From NCBI GenBank assembly GCA_013393545.1, contig JABXHG010000011.1, forward strand, positions 1-23,267: 23,267 bases of DNA, given 5' to 3'. Position 1 is the first letter of the stretch. Each line of letters opens with the position of its first letter. The position numbers were made by a program, and so were the translations under genes. The stretch is from Alteromonadaceae bacterium. GTDB taxonomy: Bacteria > Pseudomonadota > Gammaproteobacteria > Pseudomonadales > Oleiphilaceae. The notes below the pieces were generated by a model. The model was not told the origin of the DNA and did no database searches. It worked only from the letters and a program-made list of their open reading frames with translations. Shown here piece by piece: positions 1 to 12,236 of this stretch.

Positions 1-156
1 GGCTTTGTAGCCGGCGTAATCGTCACACACCAGCTTGCCTTGCCAGTCGCCCAGGAAGGTGCGGGCGTGTTCGCCCGCCCGGCTGGGGGCGAAGTCGTAA
101 ACAGTGGCTTTCAGGTCCGAGAACGGTGTGGTGCAGTACGCCCAGACGTAGGCCTT
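1..156 (-). pseudogene. IS66-family transposase fragment
   Basis: Read on the minus strand, the 52 codons from 156 down to the window edge contain KAYVWAY, then a GEHARTFLGDW-like stretch, then LVCDDYAGYKA. This is the IS66 transposase (TnpC) core pattern, in which a lab-strain IS66 reads like GEHPQxxLxxFxGxLxxDGYxGY. Only this internal piece is visible. It continues off the left edge, so its 3' extent is unknown. Its 5' side is not a normal transposase start: the frame runs straight into the truncated toxin gene at about 157-197, and no terminal inverted repeat is seen. The fragment is therefore the remnant of a rearrangement rather than a complete element in place. No tnpA or tnpB partner is in the window. 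Confidence 0.75.
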
Positions 157-368
157 GAAGAAAAGGGAGCAAGAAAGGGAGTGCCTGTCCATGAAAAAAA
201 ACCCAACTCGTCCTCATGCAACTTCGTGATCCGGCTACTGACCGGAATCCCAACGAAATCGTCAAACGGGAGATTATCCTTGAAGACGATTACTGGCCGG
301 CGCTTACTGGTTTTGAGATCGGAAAAGTAAAACTCGCAAAGCAGCACGTCTCCGGGCTTCAGGTCCAT
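111..368 (-). pseudogene. Truncated MazF/PemK-like toxin
   Basis: The start is the ATG at 368, which overlaps the antitoxin stop by 10 bases, as is usual in toxin-antitoxin operons. Residues 1-57 (MDLKPGDVLLCEFYFSD, then SKRRPVIVF, then GIPVSSRI) match the N-terminal half of MazF/PemK endoribonucleases: the GDVxLxxF opening, the KxRPVxVF strand and the xxPxSSxI strand. Family members are about 110-125 residues. Here the similarity stops near base 197, where sequence continuous with the IS66 fragment begins, and the frame then runs through unrelated codons to 111. The C-terminal half of the fold is lost, so mRNA cleavage activity is unlikely. The call rests on motif recognition; the break is seen directly. 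Confidence 0.7.
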
Positions 369-565
369 ACCTCGTCCTCGGCAACGTCTTGCCATTCGGG
401 AATAGAATTGGCCGAATGCTCGGAAAACGCCTTTACGTCGCTACCCTCTTTGGGCTCTTCAACCATCACCACCACCCGGGCGTGAGTATTCTTGAGCCGA
501 GCGTATTCCGGGGGGATTTTAACAACGCCGTCTTGAATGTCGGCTTCAAACTCAATTGCGTACAT
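359..565 (-). CDS. Antitoxin of the truncated MazF/PemK-like pair
   Basis: This 68-residue protein begins MYAIEFEADIQDGVVKIPPEY and ends in an acidic tail (SEHSANSIPEWQDVAEDEVWT). The N-terminal part looks like the short beta-rich DNA-binding region of small antitoxins that precede PemK-like toxins. The acidic C-terminus would be the toxin-binding segment. GAGG lies 5 bases before the ATG at 565, supporting the start. It overlaps the toxin start by 10 bases, so the pair was translationally coupled. Antitoxins of this kind usually repress their own promoter; here the toxin is broken, so this gene may be an orphan regulator or a relic under relaxed selection. The family is not identified with certainty; the role is inferred mainly from position, size and charge. 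Confidence 0.6.
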   Translation of the reverse strand: MYAIEFEADIQDGVVKIPPEYARLKNTHARVVVMVEEPKEGSDVKAFSEHSANSIPEWQDVAEDEVWT

Positions 566-1047: not shown

Positions 1048-1079
1048 CGGAAAAACAAAAATCCGGAATGTCAGTTTTT
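1048..1079 (+). repeat. 32-bp direct repeat, left copy
   Basis: These 32 bases are identical to 2270-2301 in the same orientation; the match stops cleanly on both sides. The core reads ATCCGGAATGTCAGTTTTT. This copy abuts the DUF4214 remnant, and the other copy lies upstream of the adhesin pseudogene. The two copies bracket the first Rpn-like gene. Confidence 0.9.
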
Positions 1080-1205: not shown

Positions 1206-1439
1206 TCAGTGCTTGTCTTCAATGCGTAGCCGAGCGATCTCATCGAGTGCCATGCCGGTTGCCTCGGCAATCTGTTCATCACTCAGCACACCGAACGCCA
1301 ACAAATGACGGACGGTTTCACGCTTTTCTTCCAATGCACGTCGCTCCGCTTCTCGACGCTCTTTTTCACGCCCTTCTTGAAGCCCTACCTGGCGTTCTTT
1401 CTCACGCTCCAGGCGTTCAACGGTATTGATATAAGGCAT
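1206..1439 (-). CDS. Predicted intragenic small protein of the first Rpn-like gene (77 aa)
   Basis: In the same frame as the nuclease, AGGAGG (1453-1448) lies exactly 8 bases before an ATG (1439-1437), an optimal initiation geometry inside a coding region. The product would be MPYINTVERLEREKERQ..., a coiled coil followed by the conserved helix-turn-helix-like tail. E. coli rpn genes are reported to produce such C-terminal proteins from internal starts, acting as antitoxins to the full-length nuclease. The site is seen in the sequence; separate expression and inhibitory function are inference. Confidence 0.45.
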   Translation of the reverse strand: MPYINTVERLEREKERQVGLQEGREKERREAERRALEEKRETVRHLLAFGVLSDEQIAEATGMALDEIARLRIEDKH

Positions 1440-2162
1440 GTGTTTTTCCTCCTGTATGGTGTAGACCGCCTGTACGAACTCCGGCTCTAAACCTCTCGGC
1501 AACTGAATCATCCAATCAATGATGTTAAACAGCCGAATAATCTCATCACGCTGATAACCCCGCTCAAACAACATTCGTGTCAGTGCAACTTTGGTATCTT
1601 TGCGTGATGCCCCATCCTTCACCCGCTTGGCCCTGATCTGAGCCATCACGACCAACGCAAACAGATTATCGCTGGTTTCCAGCTCTGCCCACCGTGCTTC
1701 CCAGTCAATCAGTTTAGCCATGGGGAAGGTGAAAATCACCCCGCATCCCCAGCGCTTATAATGAAACGTCGTTGGTCGGAAGCTCTTGCGAGTATCGGCC
1801 AATACAGCCAGGCTCACCACATCCATCCCGTAACGATCCCGCAGCCGGTACTGATACGTGTACATGCGCTCGGCAAAATCTTCTTCCGGCTCACCCTGTA
1901 CCTCAACGTGGATCAGCACCCAGGTTTCGCTGCCATCTTTGGCGTAGACCTTGATGAGCTTGTCCGCGTAGCGCCGACCACTCTGCGCATCGGCCGTGAT
2001 CTGCTGCAGTTCATTATCAAGAAAGCTGTAACCCTCTGACCAGTCTACTTGCTCATTAATCTCGGGGAACAACAAGCCAAGAAATTCTTCAAAATACGCC
2101 TCCAGCGCCATCTTCCAGGGGCTGTCGTGATCGGCTCGTCGATTTTCTTCCTGCTCGCTCAT
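1206..2162 (-). CDS. Rpn-like PD-(D/E)XK nuclease (putative transposase family)
   Basis: This 318-residue protein starts at an ATG with AGGAG 5 bases upstream. The N-terminal domain carries a PD-(D/E)XK-like pattern: an aspartate near residue 67 (RRYADKLIKVY), then a strand ending HVEVQ with E87 and Q89, followed by FAERMYTYQYRLRDRYG. This fits the family often annotated as cytosolic protein, DUF4351-associated or Rpn/transposase-like nuclease. A charged coiled coil (residues about 245-285) leads into a conserved tail, RHLLAFGVLSDEQIAEATG, then MALDEIARLRIEDKH. The tail is almost the same as that of the gene at 6944-7909, although the nuclease heads differ. Rpn nucleases act on DNA and have been linked to RecA-independent recombination and to antiphage defence. 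A strong ribosome binding site inside the gene suggests a second product from residue 242. No terminal repeats mark it as a transposon. Confidence 0.7.
   Translation of the reverse strand: MSEQEENRRADHDSPWKMALEAYFEEFLGLLFPEINEQVDWSEGYSFLDNELQQITADAQSGRRYADKLIKVYAKDGSETWVLIHVEVQGEPEEDFAERMYTYQYRLRDRYGMDVVSLAVLADTRKSFRPTTFHYKRWGCGVIFTFPMAKLIDWEARWAELETSDNLFALVVMAQIRAKRVKDGASRKDTKVALTRMLFERGYQRDEIIRLFNIIDWMIQLPRGLEPEFVQAVYTIQEEKHMPYINTVERLEREKERQVGLQEGREKERREAERRALEEKRETVRHLLAFGVLSDEQIAEATGMALDEIARLRIEDKH
1448..1453 (-). promoter_or_regulatory. Internal Shine-Dalgarno sequence
   Basis: On the minus strand this is AGGAGG followed by AAAAACAC and ATG. It is encoded by the codons for Gln-Glu-Glu in TIQEEKHM. 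It is at least as strong as the site used for the full-length gene (AGGAG). Confidence 0.6.
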
Positions 2163-2194
2163 GATCTCTCCTGTTTCGACTACTCAATTCTACC

Positions 2195-6943: not shown

Positions 6944-7159
6944 TTAATGCTTATTTTGAATCCGCAAGCTGGCAATTTCATCAAGCGCCATACCCGTGGC
7001 TTCCGCGATTTGCTCATCGCTAAGTACACCGAACGATAACAAGTGACGAACAGTCTCGCGTTTTTCTTCCGAAGCACGCTTCTCGGCTTCCTGCCAAACC
7101 TTCTGACGCTCCTCTCGACGTTCTCGTTGCGCCCAGTTCTCGAGATTTTCTGCCAACAT
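6944..7159 (-). CDS. Predicted intragenic small protein of the Rpn gene (71 aa)
   Basis: GGAGG (7172-7168) lies exactly 8 bases before an in-frame ATG (7159-7157) within VEDKDMLAEN. The product would be MLAENLENWAQRERREERQK plus the shared tail ending IASLRIQNKH. The geometry equals that of the internal site in the other Rpn-like gene, although the local codons differ. By analogy with reported E. coli RpnS proteins it could be an antitoxin; this is inferred, not shown. Confidence 0.45.
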   Translation of the reverse strand: MLAENLENWAQRERREERQKVWQEAEKRASEEKRETVRHLLSFGVLSDEQIAEATGMALDEIASLRIQNKH

Positions 7160-7909
7160 GTCTTTATCCTCCACCAAGCTATTCAATTCATCCAGCCCTA
7201 CATCCGTCCCGAGCCGTTGCAAGTGACGTTTAAGCCAGCGGGTGACGATTTTATCAGTACGCTCCTTGCTTGAGTCCGCCTGAATGATCGCGACAACCCG
7301 ATCGACCGCCGTTTGAAGCCCTTGGCGATCCCTCGAGGCTTTCTCAATACTGAACACGCCGCTCAAGGGTGTCTGCACCAAACCCAGCTCATCATCAGTA
7401 TAGCGCCCTTCATCAATCAAGTAATAACGAAGATGTGGCTGGTAGGCCCTCAAAAATTCCGGCGGTTCCGGCGTAATCATTTCAAAAATGTCAGCTTTCG
7501 CGGTCCACTTCTGAGAGCCATTATACAGTACCACCGGAAAGACCGGCGGCAACCCCTGACCCGGCGTGACAACCCCCTGTTTGAACAATTCACTGTAGAA
7601 ACAGGCCACGTAATGCATCAAGCGAATCGGCATGGTGCGATCCACTGCTGACTGAAACTCCAGAAGAATATACAGGAACACTTCCTGAGTGACCCCGTCC
7701 CAGGTGACCTCCACCGACCACACCACGTCTTCAATTCTCTCCTCGAACATCGGCGTAATGTAGTGTCCACTGTGTTGCCTGAGTGTGGAGAAATCCATGA
7801 GCTGCGCGATTTCGACCGGCGCAAAGCCCTCAATCAGCTGCTGAACAAACTCAGGGTAGCTGAACAGCTCTTTATAGCCGGTATCGTGATGATTGGCAGC
7901 ACCCGCCAT
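6944..7909 (-). CDS. Rpn family recombination-promoting nuclease/putative transposase
   Basis: This 321-residue protein has AGGAG 5 bases before its ATG. It begins with HHDTGYKELFSYPEFVQQLI, the hallmark opening of the Rpn/YhgA-like family (HDxxYKxLFSxPxxVxxLI). Catalytic-type residues of the PD-(D/E)XK fold follow: D61 (ERIEDVVWSVE) and ILLEFQ (E84, Q86), then RLMHYVACFYSEL and PPVFPVVLYNG. Family members are about 290-320 residues. After the nuclease core come a charged helical linker and a C-terminal tail almost identical to that of the gene at 1206-2162. E. coli RpnA-E are DNA endonucleases that stimulate recombination, and Rpn proteins have been tied to phage defence with intragenic antitoxins. 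A matching internal start is present here. The gene sits between the acyltransferase terminator and the SapC-family gene, with no flanking repeats seen. Confidence 0.9.
   Translation of the reverse strand: MAGAANHHDTGYKELFSYPEFVQQLIEGFAPVEIAQLMDFSTLRQHSGHYITPMFEERIEDVVWSVEVTWDGVTQEVFLYILLEFQSAVDRTMPIRLMHYVACFYSELFKQGVVTPGQGLPPVFPVVLYNGSQKWTAKADIFEMITPEPPEFLRAYQPHLRYYLIDEGRYTDDELGLVQTPLSGVFSIEKASRDRQGLQTAVDRVVAIIQADSSKERTDKIVTRWLKRHLQRLGTDVGLDELNSLVEDKDMLAENLENWAQRERREERQKVWQEAEKRASEEKRETVRHLLSFGVLSDEQIAEATGMALDEIASLRIQNKH
7168..7172 (-). promoter_or_regulatory. Internal Shine-Dalgarno sequence
   Basis: GGAGG followed by ATAAAGAC and ATG on the minus strand, encoded across the Val-Glu-Asp codons. 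Strong site with near-optimal 8-base spacing. Confidence 0.6.
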
Positions 7910-7984: not shown

Positions 7985-8788
7985 TCAGAACTTGAGGTCG
8001 CCGTCGTCTTCGTCGGCGAACAGGGCTTCCAGGTCCACTTCTTCTTTGGGAGCTGAGGACTGCTGGCTGGCTTTTTGGCGCAGTTCGTACAGGCGGGCCA
8101 CGCCCTGCAAACGGTGTTCGGAGAGCAACTGGGTCATGGCAATCGACAAGGCACCACTTTTCAGAAGCCGGGCAGCCGTTTCCGGCTCCAGATTACGCAT
8201 GGCGTTTTCATCAATGTGATAAGCACCTTGCACGTCATAACCGCTCTCGCCACCGGCGCTTTTCGCGGAAATCTGCCAGGGTACAATCAAACCGGCTTCA
8301 TCGAGCTGGTTGACCAATGCCTGAGTGACTTCCCGTGCATTCTCAAACTTCTCAAGAAACTCCAACAACCTGCGAGTCGCCTCCATTGGCTCCCCTTCGG
8401 CGTTGAACAAGGGCCGGGCATCCACACCGCCCACTTTCTGAAATGCCTCGGAATCCTCATCCACACAGACAACCCGACGGCTGCCGCTTTCGTCCCGCAC
8501 CAGGCGGAAGGGATGAGCGCGATACCAGGCCGGACGATACCCACCAATCCAGCGGCCATCCGTGTGCACGTAAACATTAACGCCAGGCTGCAGTGATTGA
8601 AGCACCACCAATTCATAAGCAGAACCTTCGCCCTGGCTCACAAAAGCCAACGGCATGGTAGGCAATACCTGATTCATTTCTTCGGCGACAACCGGCACCA
8701 CCGCGCGCTCCAGCGCATGGCTGTTACCCGTGGGTAGCAGGCCGGCTTCGCGGTGTTCGGTTTTGCTTAAAGCAACATAACGGGCCAT
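7985..8788 (-). CDS. SapC family protein
   Basis: This 267-residue protein starts at the ATG at 8788, with GAGG 5-6 bases upstream, giving MARYVALSKTEHREAGLLP. An in-frame start 12 codons earlier is possible but lacks such a site. The pattern VPVVAEEMNQVLPTMPLAFV, then YELVVLQSLQPGVNVYV, then GRWIGGYRPAWYRAHPFRL is characteristic of the SapC family (named for Campylobacter fetus SapC, encoded beside the S-layer exporter SapDEF). The C-terminus is helical and ends in an acidic tail (EEVDLEALFADEDDGDLKF). There is no signal peptide or membrane segment, so a cytoplasmic role is likely, perhaps handling the S-layer protein before export. It lies downstream of the putative S-layer gene but behind a terminator, so it probably has its own promoter. 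Its biochemical function is not established. Confidence 0.8.
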   Translation of the reverse strand: MARYVALSKTEHREAGLLPTGNSHALERAVVPVVAEEMNQVLPTMPLAFVSQGEGSAYELVVLQSLQPGVNVYVHTDGRWIGGYRPAWYRAHPFRLVRDESGSRRVVCVDEDSEAFQKVGGVDARPLFNAEGEPMEATRRLLEFLEKFENAREVTQALVNQLDEAGLIVPWQISAKSAGGESGYDVQGAYHIDENAMRNLEPETAARLLKSGALSIAMTQLLSEHRLQGVARLYELRQKASQQSSAPKEEVDLEALFADEDDGDLKF

Positions 8789-8884
8789 AGACACCTCAAC
8801 GTTTTTAAATTTTTGTGGCAGCATACCACAAAGCAGAACTCCCTATTTCAATATGTTCTGTACGCCATTAACCAATCAAAAAAC

Positions 8885-8911
8885 AAAAAAAAAGCCCTGG
8901 AAAACCAGGGC
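8885..8911 (-). terminator. Terminator of the surface-protein gene
   Basis: Reading minus, GCCCTGG, loop TTTT, CCAGGGC is followed by nine T (plus-strand A run at 8885-8893). It lies about 55 bases after the stop of the gene at 8967-12236. Confidence 0.9.
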
Positions 8912-8966
8912 CTTTCTGTTTCAACGTCAAGAGAGACCAGACTGGCCTCTCTTTAACGAAACCGAC

Positions 8967-11900
8967 TTAAGCAATCAAGTTAGCATTGCTCAGATCAGTA
9001 TCAACTTCGGCACCGAAGTCGATTACACCCAGAAGCTGGGCTGAGCCAAAGTCGCCTGCAGTACCGCCGGCGTCTTCAACGCTGGAGGTCACTTCAAAGA
9101 CTTTGTATTCACCACGGTTATGGTTGCTATCTACAAGAACGATGTTCTTGATGGTATCGCCCACAAACGTAGCACCACCCACTTGGCTGGCAGCGTAAGA
9201 GTCTACATTAGCACGAGTGTTCTGAAGGTTCGCAGAACCATCGGCCAAGGTAGTGCCTGTGCCCCAATCTTCCGTGCCGTTAAGCGCCGCAATCAGGTCA
9301 GCACCGTTCAGGTCAGCCCAAGTCTCGTTGTTAGCACTGTCTTCATTGAAAGTCAGTACAACGACTTGGTCTGCATTAACACTGTTGGTAGTCGCTACAG
9401 TGTCGTTCAAGCTGTTCACTGAATTACCAGCACCGCTTCCGCTCACATCGATCTGACCAGTCAGGTAGCTGGTGAAATCAATGAAATCGTAGCCCTGAGT
9501 GTCAGTTGTGTCATCTGCAACGAAGTTCACAACTGTGTTGTGGCCGATGGAGGAACCGGTGACCACCAGCGTGTCATTGCTGTCAACACCTGTACCCATA
9601 ACCACGACGTCGGTGCCGGCACCCAAGTTAACTACGTTGTTGCTCTCAACACCACTGTTCGCGCCGGCAATGGGGTTAGTGCCGTCGGTAGCGAACGAAG
9701 AGTTGTTTGTTGCAGGAGTTCCTTCATCACTGAGACCCTCGTAACCGCCGCCGGTCGTTTGGTCGGTGGTTACGTTATCGATTTCAGTAGAAACCTGAGT
9801 CAAGGCAGCTGCCGAATTCGCAAAAGAAGCGCTGCTATCACCATTGAAGGCTGCCCACGCGTTGTTAACCGTGTTCAGCTCCGCAGAGCTCAGAGCCTCA
9901 GTCGGAGCGTTCAGTTCAATGCGAAGATCGTCCGAACTAAACTCACCGTCGATCAAGGAGCGAACGATCAGGGTGTCGTTCGGGCCATCGATCGCTTCCA
10001 GCAGAGCGCTAAGAACGTCGTCTTCGTTGATGGCTTCTTTGATGGCCTGGTTGATGTGACGCTCGGTGGCGGCATAGTTAGAGCCGGTCGGCACGTCTAC
10101 CTGAGCTTCAAAACCGTTAGCCAGAGCGTCAGCAGCGGCCCCAGTCAGGTTCGCAGCGTTAGTCAGAGCAGCACCTGACAGAGTCACAGTCAGCTTGGTG
10201 TTGTACAGGAAGTACGGACCAGTCTCACCGGAAGTGCCGGCCAGCGGGGAGCCAGTGCCACCCAGCAGATCAGTAACGTCCAGTTCTTCTGAGTTAAACG
10301 CCCAGTGTGCTTTTACATCACCAACGGCGGTTCCTGTTTGCTCACCGCTGTTGTCAGTGTAAACAACGTCGTTGCCAGCGCCTGCGATGATGGTTGCATC
10401 ACCAGCACCCGGAGTAGCAACCACGTCATCACCAGAACCAGAGTTGATCACGATGTTCTTCTGATCTTTCTGGTTGTCGTACCAGTTGCTCGGAGCAGCA
10501 GCGCCGTCGTTGTCCAGAGTCAGGACGATGCGGTCATTGCCAGTACCAGTAGTGATGTTCAGCTCAACGTCTTCGAAGGAGATCACAGACTCACTGAACG
10601 ACAGGAACAGCTGGTTGTCACCGTTACCCAGGTTGTAATCGTAAGTCAGGTTGTCGCCAGCCGGAACTGCATCGTCGTCGGTGCGGTCCAGGTCACGAGC
10701 TACAACTTTCTCAGTTACCTGAGCGTTGATGCGAACGTTCTGAGCAAAGTTGTCAGCGTTGAATTCGCGAACGTCGGTGATACCGGCGTTGTCTTTGCCG
10801 TCAACCACTGTGCCGCCGTCAACGTTCTGGGCAGAGTTCTGCTCAGTACCAACGTGGAAGTAGTCCGCTGCGCCAGTCAGGTTGATCACTTCCAGAGTGT
10901 TCAGGGTGCGATCTTTCAGCGGCTGTGAAGACAGCTCAGTCAGCCATACGCCCAGATCCAGGTTGTGCTTCTCGGCAGTGATGTCGAACTGCTCAACACC
11001 GCGGTCAGACATGGACTGGCCAGAAACGTTTACGCTGCCGCCCTGTGAACCATAACCAACGTTTTGGAATTCCAGGTTGGTGGTGATCAGGTCAGTTTCG
11101 GAACCCAGTACGCTGGTGTCCTGACGACCAGAGGGGTCAACGTTACGGTCGCCGCCAGAGCGCTGACCGAAGCTGAAGCCGCCACGTTCGATCAGGTTGT
11201 TGCCTTCGGCTGTCAGTACAACCTGGCTACCCAGTACGTTGGCACCAGTAGTTTGCAGGGTGTCCGGATCTACTTGTTGACGAGTGAAGTCGCCGCCCAG
11301 CTCAACAGTTACGTCGTTCAGGTCAGCGTTGTCTTCTGCCAGCTCGTCGATACGAGCCTGAATGGCTTCAACCAGCTCAGTGTAGGTTTCAGCGTTCAGG
11401 ATGTCGTCGGAACCAACAACCACGTCTTCACCGTTCAGACGGAAGCTGAAGGATTCGATCGCTACCAGGCTCAATGCTGCGTCTTTGTTGTCCGCTTCGG
11501 CCATACGGTCGATAACTTCAACAGTCAGCTGAGAACCCAGGTTAGTGGTTACGTTATCCAGCAGCGGAGACAGCATGTAGGCTTCGTAGTGACCGTGGTC
11601 GCCCAGCTGGTTTTCGGTGCGGAAAGTGTAGTCCTTGGCGATTGTGCTAACGCCTTGGTCAATCGCTTCGATACCCACGTTGTAGATTTTGTGGGTGTTG
11701 GACATGTAGCTGTCTTCACCAGTGTCGTGGCTTACTTCGCCAGTCTCGTCAGACTTGGTGTGAGTCCAGCCAGTTACGTCAGAAGCGCCTTTGTCGGTGT
11801 TGAAATCGAATTCAGTGGTGATTTCAACCGGCTCTTCGTCGCCGTCGTCCGGCTCGGTCGGAGTAGCGAATTCGCCTTCAACGGTGCTCAAACCAGCAGT

Positions 11901-12236
11901 GCCGTCTACGAAGTTTTCTTCGTTTTCACGGTTGAGATCAGCAGCGTACTGGAATTCAACGGCCAGGCGTGCTTTGCTCAGCTCGCTCGGGGCGCCCAGC
12001 AGAGAAGTCCAGTACTCCAGGCCTTCCTGATCCGGTGTACGGTCAAGCAGGTTTTCGTACAGACTGGTTACAAAAGCAGTGTTCGACGGTTCCGCCTGAT
12101 CGCTCAGCAGTTCGGTTGCCAGAGCGTTCAGCCCTGTAGTTTCGAAGGCTGCCTGCAGCTCTGCCTGCGACGGCGCCTCACCGGTGATTGCAACGTAGGT
12201 GTTGATAACACCAATCTCGTTACCATTCAAAGCCAT
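8967..12236 (-). CDS. Putative S-layer/large surface protein secreted by type I system (DUF4214, RTX-like)
   Basis: This 1089-residue protein starts at an ATG with GGAG 7 bases upstream. Residues about 1-115 form a DUF4214-type helical domain (FVTSLYENLLDRTPDQEGLE, YWTSLLG). The rest is rich in Asp, Asn, Thr, Gly and Val and contains no cysteine. RTX-like calcium-binding motifs appear at about 560-635 (GTGNDRI, GSGDDVV, GAGNDVVY) and 868-895 (NLGAGTDVVVMGTG). There is no Sec signal peptide, and the hydrophobic-acidic C-terminus (GVIDFGAEVDTDLSNANLIA) is in the expected place for a type I secretion signal. The whole set fits an S-layer or abundant surface protein similar in plan to Caulobacter RsaA. 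The sense strand avoids codons that would place stops on the complement, leaving long antisense shadow frames, a sign of the codon bias of highly expressed genes. The exporter operon lies just upstream. Confidence 0.75.
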   Translation of the reverse strand: MALNGNEIGVINTYVAITGEAPSQAELQAAFETTGLNALATELLSDQAEPSNTAFVTSLYENLLDRTPDQEGLEYWTSLLGAPSELSKARLAVEFQYAADLNRENEENFVDGTAGLSTVEGEFATPTEPDDGDEEPVEITTEFDFNTDKGASDVTGWTHTKSDETGEVSHDTGEDSYMSNTHKIYNVGIEAIDQGVSTIAKDYTFRTENQLGDHGHYEAYMLSPLLDNVTTNLGSQLTVEVIDRMAEADNKDAALSLVAIESFSFRLNGEDVVVGSDDILNAETYTELVEAIQARIDELAEDNADLNDVTVELGGDFTRQQVDPDTLQTTGANVLGSQVVLTAEGNNLIERGGFSFGQRSGGDRNVDPSGRQDTSVLGSETDLITTNLEFQNVGYGSQGGSVNVSGQSMSDRGVEQFDITAEKHNLDLGVWLTELSSQPLKDRTLNTLEVINLTGAADYFHVGTEQNSAQNVDGGTVVDGKDNAGITDVREFNADNFAQNVRINAQVTEKVVARDLDRTDDDAVPAGDNLTYDYNLGNGDNQLFLSFSESVISFEDVELNITTGTGNDRIVLTLDNDGAAAPSNWYDNQKDQKNIVINSGSGDDVVATPGAGDATIIAGAGNDVVYTDNSGEQTGTAVGDVKAHWAFNSEELDVTDLLGGTGSPLAGTSGETGPYFLYNTKLTVTLSGAALTNAANLTGAAADALANGFEAQVDVPTGSNYAATERHINQAIKEAINEDDVLSALLEAIDGPNDTLIVRSLIDGEFSSDDLRIELNAPTEALSSAELNTVNNAWAAFNGDSSASFANSAAALTQVSTEIDNVTTDQTTGGGYEGLSDEGTPATNNSSFATDGTNPIAGANSGVESNNVVNLGAGTDVVVMGTGVDSNDTLVVTGSSIGHNTVVNFVADDTTDTQGYDFIDFTSYLTGQIDVSGSGAGNSVNSLNDTVATTNSVNADQVVVLTFNEDSANNETWADLNGADLIAALNGTEDWGTGTTLADGSANLQNTRANVDSYAASQVGGATFVGDTIKNIVLVDSNHNRGEYKVFEVTSSVEDAGGTAGDFGSAQLLGVIDFGAEVDTDLSNANLIA

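What the first reader, a model, noticed from the sequence alone, without database searches (positions are those of the whole stretch)
1206..1453. Internal ribosome binding site and start codon inside the first Rpn-like nuclease gene
AGGAGG with an 8-base spacer precedes an in-frame ATG at codon 242 of 318. It predicts a separate 77-residue protein made of a coiled coil plus the conserved tail. E. coli rpn antiphage nucleases are reported to encode C-terminal antitoxins from internal starts. Here the head belongs to a different nuclease lineage, so this would extend the arrangement beyond the classic Rpn family.
Basis: partly seen in the sequence, partly recalled or inferred. Interest (0 to 1): 0.8.

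Follow-up and report, generated by a model that had tools for sequence, protein, structure and literature searches.

The report
Hidden antitoxin gene inside nuclease gene
A bacterial DNA-cutting enzyme gene carries a second, strongly conserved start signal that very probably makes a small extra protein from its last quarter, most likely the enzyme's own off-switch, as already shown for related E. coli enzymes.

Summary
Observation confirmed. Gene A (1206-2162, minus, 318 codons) has AGGAGG (1448-1453), 8 bases, then an in-frame ATG (codon 242) opening a 77-residue ORF. Alone the motif is chance-level in the window; comparison makes it compelling. Of 189 distinct relatives, 181 keep a start codon (175 ATG, 6 GTG) and 174 also strong ribosome-binding energy; the next-best of 238 columns reaches 37 of 182. 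No synonymous shuffle of 500 is as strong, also after thinning. In AT-rich genes Glu here is GAG 83:11, elsewhere 442:1438. Thirteen head-less ORFs begin at the aligned Met. Tail length varies mostly in 4-residue steps.

Best explanation: an RpnL/RpnS-type nested toxin-antitoxin, published for E. coli (Zhong 2023), in a divergent nuclease subfamily that misses the Rpn profile cut-offs but keeps RpnA's catalytic residues. Classic Rpn gene B (6944-7909) has the same arrangement, which the finding does not mention. Apparently new: C-terminal cassettes pass between the two head families, with the break downstream of the internal start. Translation and antitoxin action were not measured.

The parts
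1206..2162 (-). gene A, full-length Rpn-like nuclease (L), 318 aa
   Evidence: ORF; 1150 relatives at E<=1e-3; RpnA catalytic residues aligned
2168..2172 (-). AGGAG before the start of gene A
   Evidence: sequence upstream of the start
1448..1453 (-). internal Shine-Dalgarno AGGAGG of gene A
   Evidence: conserved at synonymous level
1437..1439 (-). internal start codon ATG (codon 242 of gene A)
   Evidence: 181 of 189 distinct relatives have ATG or GTG here
1206..1439 (-). nested ORF for the small protein S_A, 77 aa: long helix with repeats plus HTH-like tail
   Evidence: head-less homologous ORFs elsewhere
6944..7909 (-). gene B, classic Rpn nuclease (PF04754, 98.8 bits), 321 aa, same tail type as gene A
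7168..7172 (-). internal Shine-Dalgarno GGAGG of gene B, 8 bases before its internal ATG
6944..7159 (-). nested ORF for the small protein S_B, 71 aa, from codon 251 of gene B
   Evidence: ATG in 45 of 45 distinct relatives, window included; anti-SD energy stronger than 200 of 200 synonymous shuffles

Best explanation
Gene A encodes two proteins in one frame: the full-length nuclease (L) and, from the internal ribosome-binding site and ATG at codon 242, a separate 77-residue C-terminal protein (S). S most likely pairs with the same C-terminal helix in L and keeps the nuclease off, as RpnS does to RpnL in E. coli; release or shortage of S would free a DNA-cutting, growth-stopping nuclease, probably against phage. 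Supported here by comparison: the internal start is under selection as a start, and S-like ORFs exist without a head. Inferred: actual translation in this organism (about 0.93), binding and inhibition of L (about 0.78), phage defence (weaker).
For: Start codon at the column in 181 of 189 distinct relatives, with anti-SD energy of -6 or lower in 174; next-best column 37 of 182. Mean energy -9.76 against -5.83 (sd 0.21) in synonymous shuffles, 0 of 500 as low; 0 of 500 again with 82, 55 and 22 representatives and with the 110 genes found without any motif in the search. Met to Val uses GTG in 6 of 8; 36 tripeptides encode the signal. Weaker local mRNA folding than shuffles. Thirteen head-less ORFs begin at the aligned Met, 10 of 13 with energy of -6 or lower. 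Four-residue length steps in 86 of 107, the RpnS hallmark. Catalytic residues of RpnA aligned. S model superposes on RpnA-S 7TH0, 46 of 46 residues, 1.6 A. Same internal start in gene B and in E. coli rpnA (AAG GAG AGT TTA ATG).
Against: No expression data. Gene A is below the PF04754 and TIGR01784 cut-offs. 8 of 189 relatives have no start codon at the column. Only 8 of 160 genes with 600 nt downstream in hand have a head-less S there, and 3 of the 13 such ORFs have a weak RBS. In the window's own tail cluster (21 genes) lengths split into two classes mod 4 (10 and 11). TrpR chains match the S model as well as or better than 7TH0. No promoter-like site above chance inside the gene. Relatives are not independent, and all were found with this family's own sequences.
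Confidence: 0.78

Rival explanations
1. S is translated from the internal start but is not an antitoxin: it is a working subunit of the nuclease complex (as Cas11 is of Cascade), or an HTH protein that represses its own gene or guides the nuclease to DNA.
Against: In the sequenced and tested relatives S blocks L (Zhong 2023). Four-residue length variation, which tunes RpnS-RpnL matching there, is seen here too. An HTH-like fold is also reported for RpnS (HHpred).
Confidence: 0.16
2. No internal translation: the motif follows from the conserved peptide (Q/E)-E-x-x-x-M and codon preference.
For: A lone motif is expected about once in the window, and the residues here are themselves conserved.
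Against: Synonymous shuffles keep the peptide and codon usage and never reach the observed energy; Glu codon choice reverses here in AT-rich genes; other residues re-make the same signal and GTG replaces ATG; head-less S ORFs exist.
Confidence: 0.04
3. The conserved AGGAG...ATG is a recombination signal for exchanging C-terminal tails rather than a start site.
For: Tails are exchanged: at 70-80% head identity, 212 of 300 gene pairs have tails at most 20% identical in an ungapped count.
Against: In L002 the shared DNA begins 37 nt after the first base of the internal Met, in the repeat region, and in L011/L096 about 52 nt after it, not at the motif. The signal matches the ribosome's anti-SD and start codons, GTG included.
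Confidence: 0.02

Closest known systems
RpnL/RpnS gene-within-gene toxin-antitoxins of E. coli (RpnA-E, plasmid RpnP2) and one C. difficile rpn (Zhong et al. 2023, PMC10327210, bioRxiv text, parts 1-3 of 4 read)
   Same: PD-(D/E)XK head with the residues D, D, E-x-Q, R; internal RBS and start near codon 240; C-terminal S with a long first helix and four-residue repeats; separate S-like ORFs next to full-length genes
   Different: Head below the PF04754 and TIGR01784 cut-offs; S here is 77 residues against 49 for RpnA-S; tails shared with another head family; no functional data
Classic Rpn nucleases, PF04754 (gene B of this window; Kingston et al. 2017, PMC5350276, abstract lines and passages seen)
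   Same: Aligned catalytic residues and internal Met in one alignment column; the window's A and B share a tail type
   Different: Heads are not detectably similar by hhalign with the shallow alignments used (probability 0.26)
Internal in-frame starts that make Cas11 from Cascade large-subunit genes (cited in Zhong 2023; PMC11899642 seen only in a search listing)
   Same: A small C-terminal product from an in-frame internal start
   Different: Cas11 is a working subunit, not an inhibitor

Membership tests
Rpn nucleases by profile | PF04754 (Transposase_31) over the gathering score | tested here: not met
   Gene A 12.8 bits against 21; 30 of 53 family members match at E<=0.1, best 2.3e-4
Rpn nucleases by profile | TIGR01784 over its cut-off | tested here: not met
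   Gene A 33.4 bits against 52.1, best stretch in the tail 236-311; 45 of 53 members match at E<=0.01 (cut-offs per member not shown)
RpnL/RpnS system | Catalytic residues of RpnA (D11, D63, E82, Q84, R94) | tested here: met
   D13, D67, E87, Q89, R99 in the same columns, invariant in 53 relatives; RpnA mutants from passages of Kingston 2017
RpnL/RpnS system | Internal ribosome-binding site and start codon for the C-terminal part | tested here: met
   Comparative test only, no translation measured
RpnL/RpnS system | Four-residue repeats shortly after the internal Met, varying in number | tested here: met
   86 of 107 genes differ from the modal length of their tail cluster by a multiple of 4; the window's own cluster is split 10 to 11 between two classes
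RpnL/RpnS system | Separate S genes beside full-length genes in some genomes | tested here: met
   13 head-less ORFs from the aligned Met; 8 of 160 genes have one within 600 nt downstream; none seen beside gene A among the ORFs
RpnL/RpnS system | Three-helix S fold as in 7TH0 | tested here: inconclusive
RpnL/RpnS system | L toxic, S neutralises it, complex forms | not testable with these tools
   Needs bench work
RpnL/RpnS system | Phage defence | not testable with these tools
   Needs bench work; gene A gave only one PADLOC-DB match, E 0.13, gene B none

The most novel reading that the evidence does not exclude
The nested start makes the C-terminal cassette an exchangeable matching key. Cassettes recombine through the repeat region just downstream of the internal start, between nuclease heads of different sequence families, so one DNA exchange changes toxin and antitoxin together while each head keeps its own ribosome-binding site and start. 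Genes A and B of this window, which share a tail type, would belong to one network in which an S protein may also restrain a nuclease with another head.
Probability: 0.45. Interest if true: 0.78.

Novelty: new variant of a known kind. Interest (0 to 1): 0.62.

Why it matters
It extends an antitoxin-inside-its-toxin design, tested so far (in the paper read) for E. coli rpn genes and expressed from one C. difficile gene, to a divergent nuclease subfamily found in records titled as gammaproteobacteria, cyanobacteria, Chloroflexi, planctomycetes and desulfobacteria, many of them metagenome-assembled. It also suggests why the two proteins stay nested: tails are exchanged wholesale, and nesting keeps toxin and antitoxin matched through each exchange, which can be tested.

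Full report
What is there. Gene A (window 1206-2162, minus) has AGGAGG, 8 bases and an in-frame ATG at codon 242 of 318; the nested ORF has 77 residues. Gene A's own start is preceded by AGGAG. Gene B (6944-7909, minus, 321 aa) is a classic Rpn (PF04754, 98.8 bits) and has GGAGG, 8 bases and an in-frame ATG at codon 251, so both nucleases of the window have the arrangement. No genome is held for the window.

Is it more than chance? Alone, no: 0.94 such motifs are expected in a shuffled window. By comparison, yes. In 25 and in 53 aligned relatives Met242 is invariant, and 117 of the 120 listed proteins have it (2 gaps, 1 Ile). At DNA level, 264 profile hits gave 220 usable and 189 distinct genes, the window's included; 175 have ATG, 6 GTG and 8 another codon at this column. 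A start codon with an anti-SD pairing energy of -6 kcal/mol or lower occurs in 174 of 189; the next-best of 238 columns reaches 37 of 182. Mean energy is -9.76 against -5.83 (sd 0.21) when each gene's synonymous codons are redrawn, 0 of 500 draws as low. With one representative per 70, 60 and 50% head identity (82, 55 and 22 genes) it is still 0 of 500 each; among those 22, 18 have ATG or GTG. In a separate set of 77 genes, E238 is the most biased of 145 synonymous columns (GAG 71 of 73, 39.6 expected).

The AT-rich genes are the sharpest test. In 61 genes with GC3 below 0.4, Glu at the two SD codons is GAG 83 and GAA 11, elsewhere GAG 442 and GAA 1438 (Fisher p 4e-38, not corrected for kinship). 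Among the 174 genes with start and strong energy, 36 different tripeptides stand at codons -5 to -3, among them QGD, GQE, EKE, EQE and RES, so the SD is kept while residues change; where Val stands at the column, 6 of 8 are GTG. Local mRNA folding around the start is weaker than in synonymous draws (-6.11 against -6.84, 0 of 60, 82 genes). One search pattern contained the Met, so the 110 genes that came only from profile searches were counted apart: 102 of 110 have ATG or GTG, 98 with strong energy, 0 of 500 draws as low. By record titles the signal is seen in cyanobacterial, Chloroflexi/Anaerolineae, planctomycete and desulfobacterial loci as well as gammaproteobacteria; L039, titled Kuenenia, has the ATG but a weak SD. 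For gene B, 45 of 45 distinct genes keep ATG, energy -8.60 against -5.67 (sd 0.46), 0 of 200.

S as its own gene. Thirteen ORFs begin at the aligned Met with at most 12 codons since the last stop and end with a family tail (35 to 93% identity to the best tail); 10 of 13 have an energy of -6 or lower. Eight of 160 family genes with 600 nt of downstream DNA in hand are followed by one within 600 nt; L186 holds three in a row. In L108 an S ORF 98.7% identical to that of L003 is intact, while the rows shown find only a 40-residue stretch of this head type in the 700 nt upstream. This is hard to explain unless S works as a separate protein.

Repeats and tails. Tail length varies mostly in steps of four residues: 86 of 107 genes differ from their cluster's modal length by a multiple of 4, and the largest cluster (37) lies wholly in one class; the window's own cluster (21) is split 10 to 11 between two classes. 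Four-residue repeats are the hallmark described for RpnS. Tails fall into 116 clusters among 275 S regions. At 70-80% head identity 212 of 300 pairs have tails at most 20% identical (ungapped count), while 17 of 184 tails behind gene-A-type heads are at least 50% identical to a tail behind a gene-B-type head. In one genome (L002, L083) a gene-A-type gene and a gene-B relative (36% identical to gene B) share the last 52 codons, stop included, with 2 synonymous differences; the shared DNA begins 37 nt after the first base of the internal Met and runs into the 3' flank. L011/L096 is a second case, about 52 nt after it. In the window A and B tails are alike in protein but mostly different at synonymous sites (73% DNA identity over 143 nt), so that sharing is old.

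Mechanism. Established for E. coli (Zhong 2023, bioRxiv text in PMC, parts 1-3 of 4 read; the journal version is recalled only): S is translated from the internal start, complexes with L and blocks DNA cleavage; L alone is toxic; one plasmid system restrains T-even phages. Inferred for gene A: the same. I put translation of S at about 0.93 and antitoxin action at about 0.78.

Known or new. The arrangement is known for Rpn. Gene A misses two Rpn profile cut-offs, so I do not file it as a PF04754 or TIGR01784 member; it works like RpnL/RpnS and keeps the active site, hence a new variant. Whether Zhong et al. [quoted passage not shown] some relatives are named 'RpnC/YadD family protein' by NCBI, and the words swap, exchange, cyanobacter and Halomonas do not occur in their main text. 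Six paper searches listed no other paper that, by title or abstract start, treats this subfamily or tail exchange between Rpn heads; the library lacks most subscription journals.

Against. There are no expression data. Taxon titles of assembled metagenomes may be wrong. Genes are related, and synonymous draws do not remove kinship. All relatives were found with this family's own sequences. The family is patchy: 21 of 369, 41 of 194, 10 of 199 and 3 of 201 genomes in four searches with different E limits.

Noticed in passing
window 1048-1079 and 2270-2301: Perfect 32-nt direct repeats flank gene A (start-to-start 1222 nt; near matches expected by chance 0.00); not found exactly in the 264 loci held. 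[quoted passage not shown]
   Followed up: partly
window 111-395, 359-565 and 1-192, minus strand: A PemK/MazF-like ORF (16.9 bits, below the 23.1 cut-off) whose 3' end runs into an IS66 transposase fragment, with a 68-aa ORF without a Pfam match just upstream of it: possibly a broken toxin-antitoxin pair beside gene A.
   Followed up: partly
L002 2735-6451: An array of tail cassettes behind different heads, with a related element of about 70-175 nt repeated in the flanks.
   Followed up: partly
gene A codons 115-119 (window about 1806-1820): Strong codon bias also at V115, S117 and A119 (z 6.0, 7.6, 7.0 among 145 columns); unexplained.
   Followed up: no
L186 1625-2775 and L182 2362-3044: Tandem runs of three and two head-less S ORFs after a full-length gene.
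   Followed up: partly
cyanobacterial search, genome G1209: Eleven matches to the gene A family in one genome, some of them partial or with a stop.
   Followed up: no
L205, L206, L212, L213: Distant relatives without a start codon or strong SD at the column: a loss, a sister group without S, or misalignment.
   Followed up: no
window 7985-12236, minus strand: A SapC protein beside a 1089-aa protein with a DUF4214 domain, followed by ORFs that look like type I secretion parts (by eye only).
   Followed up: no
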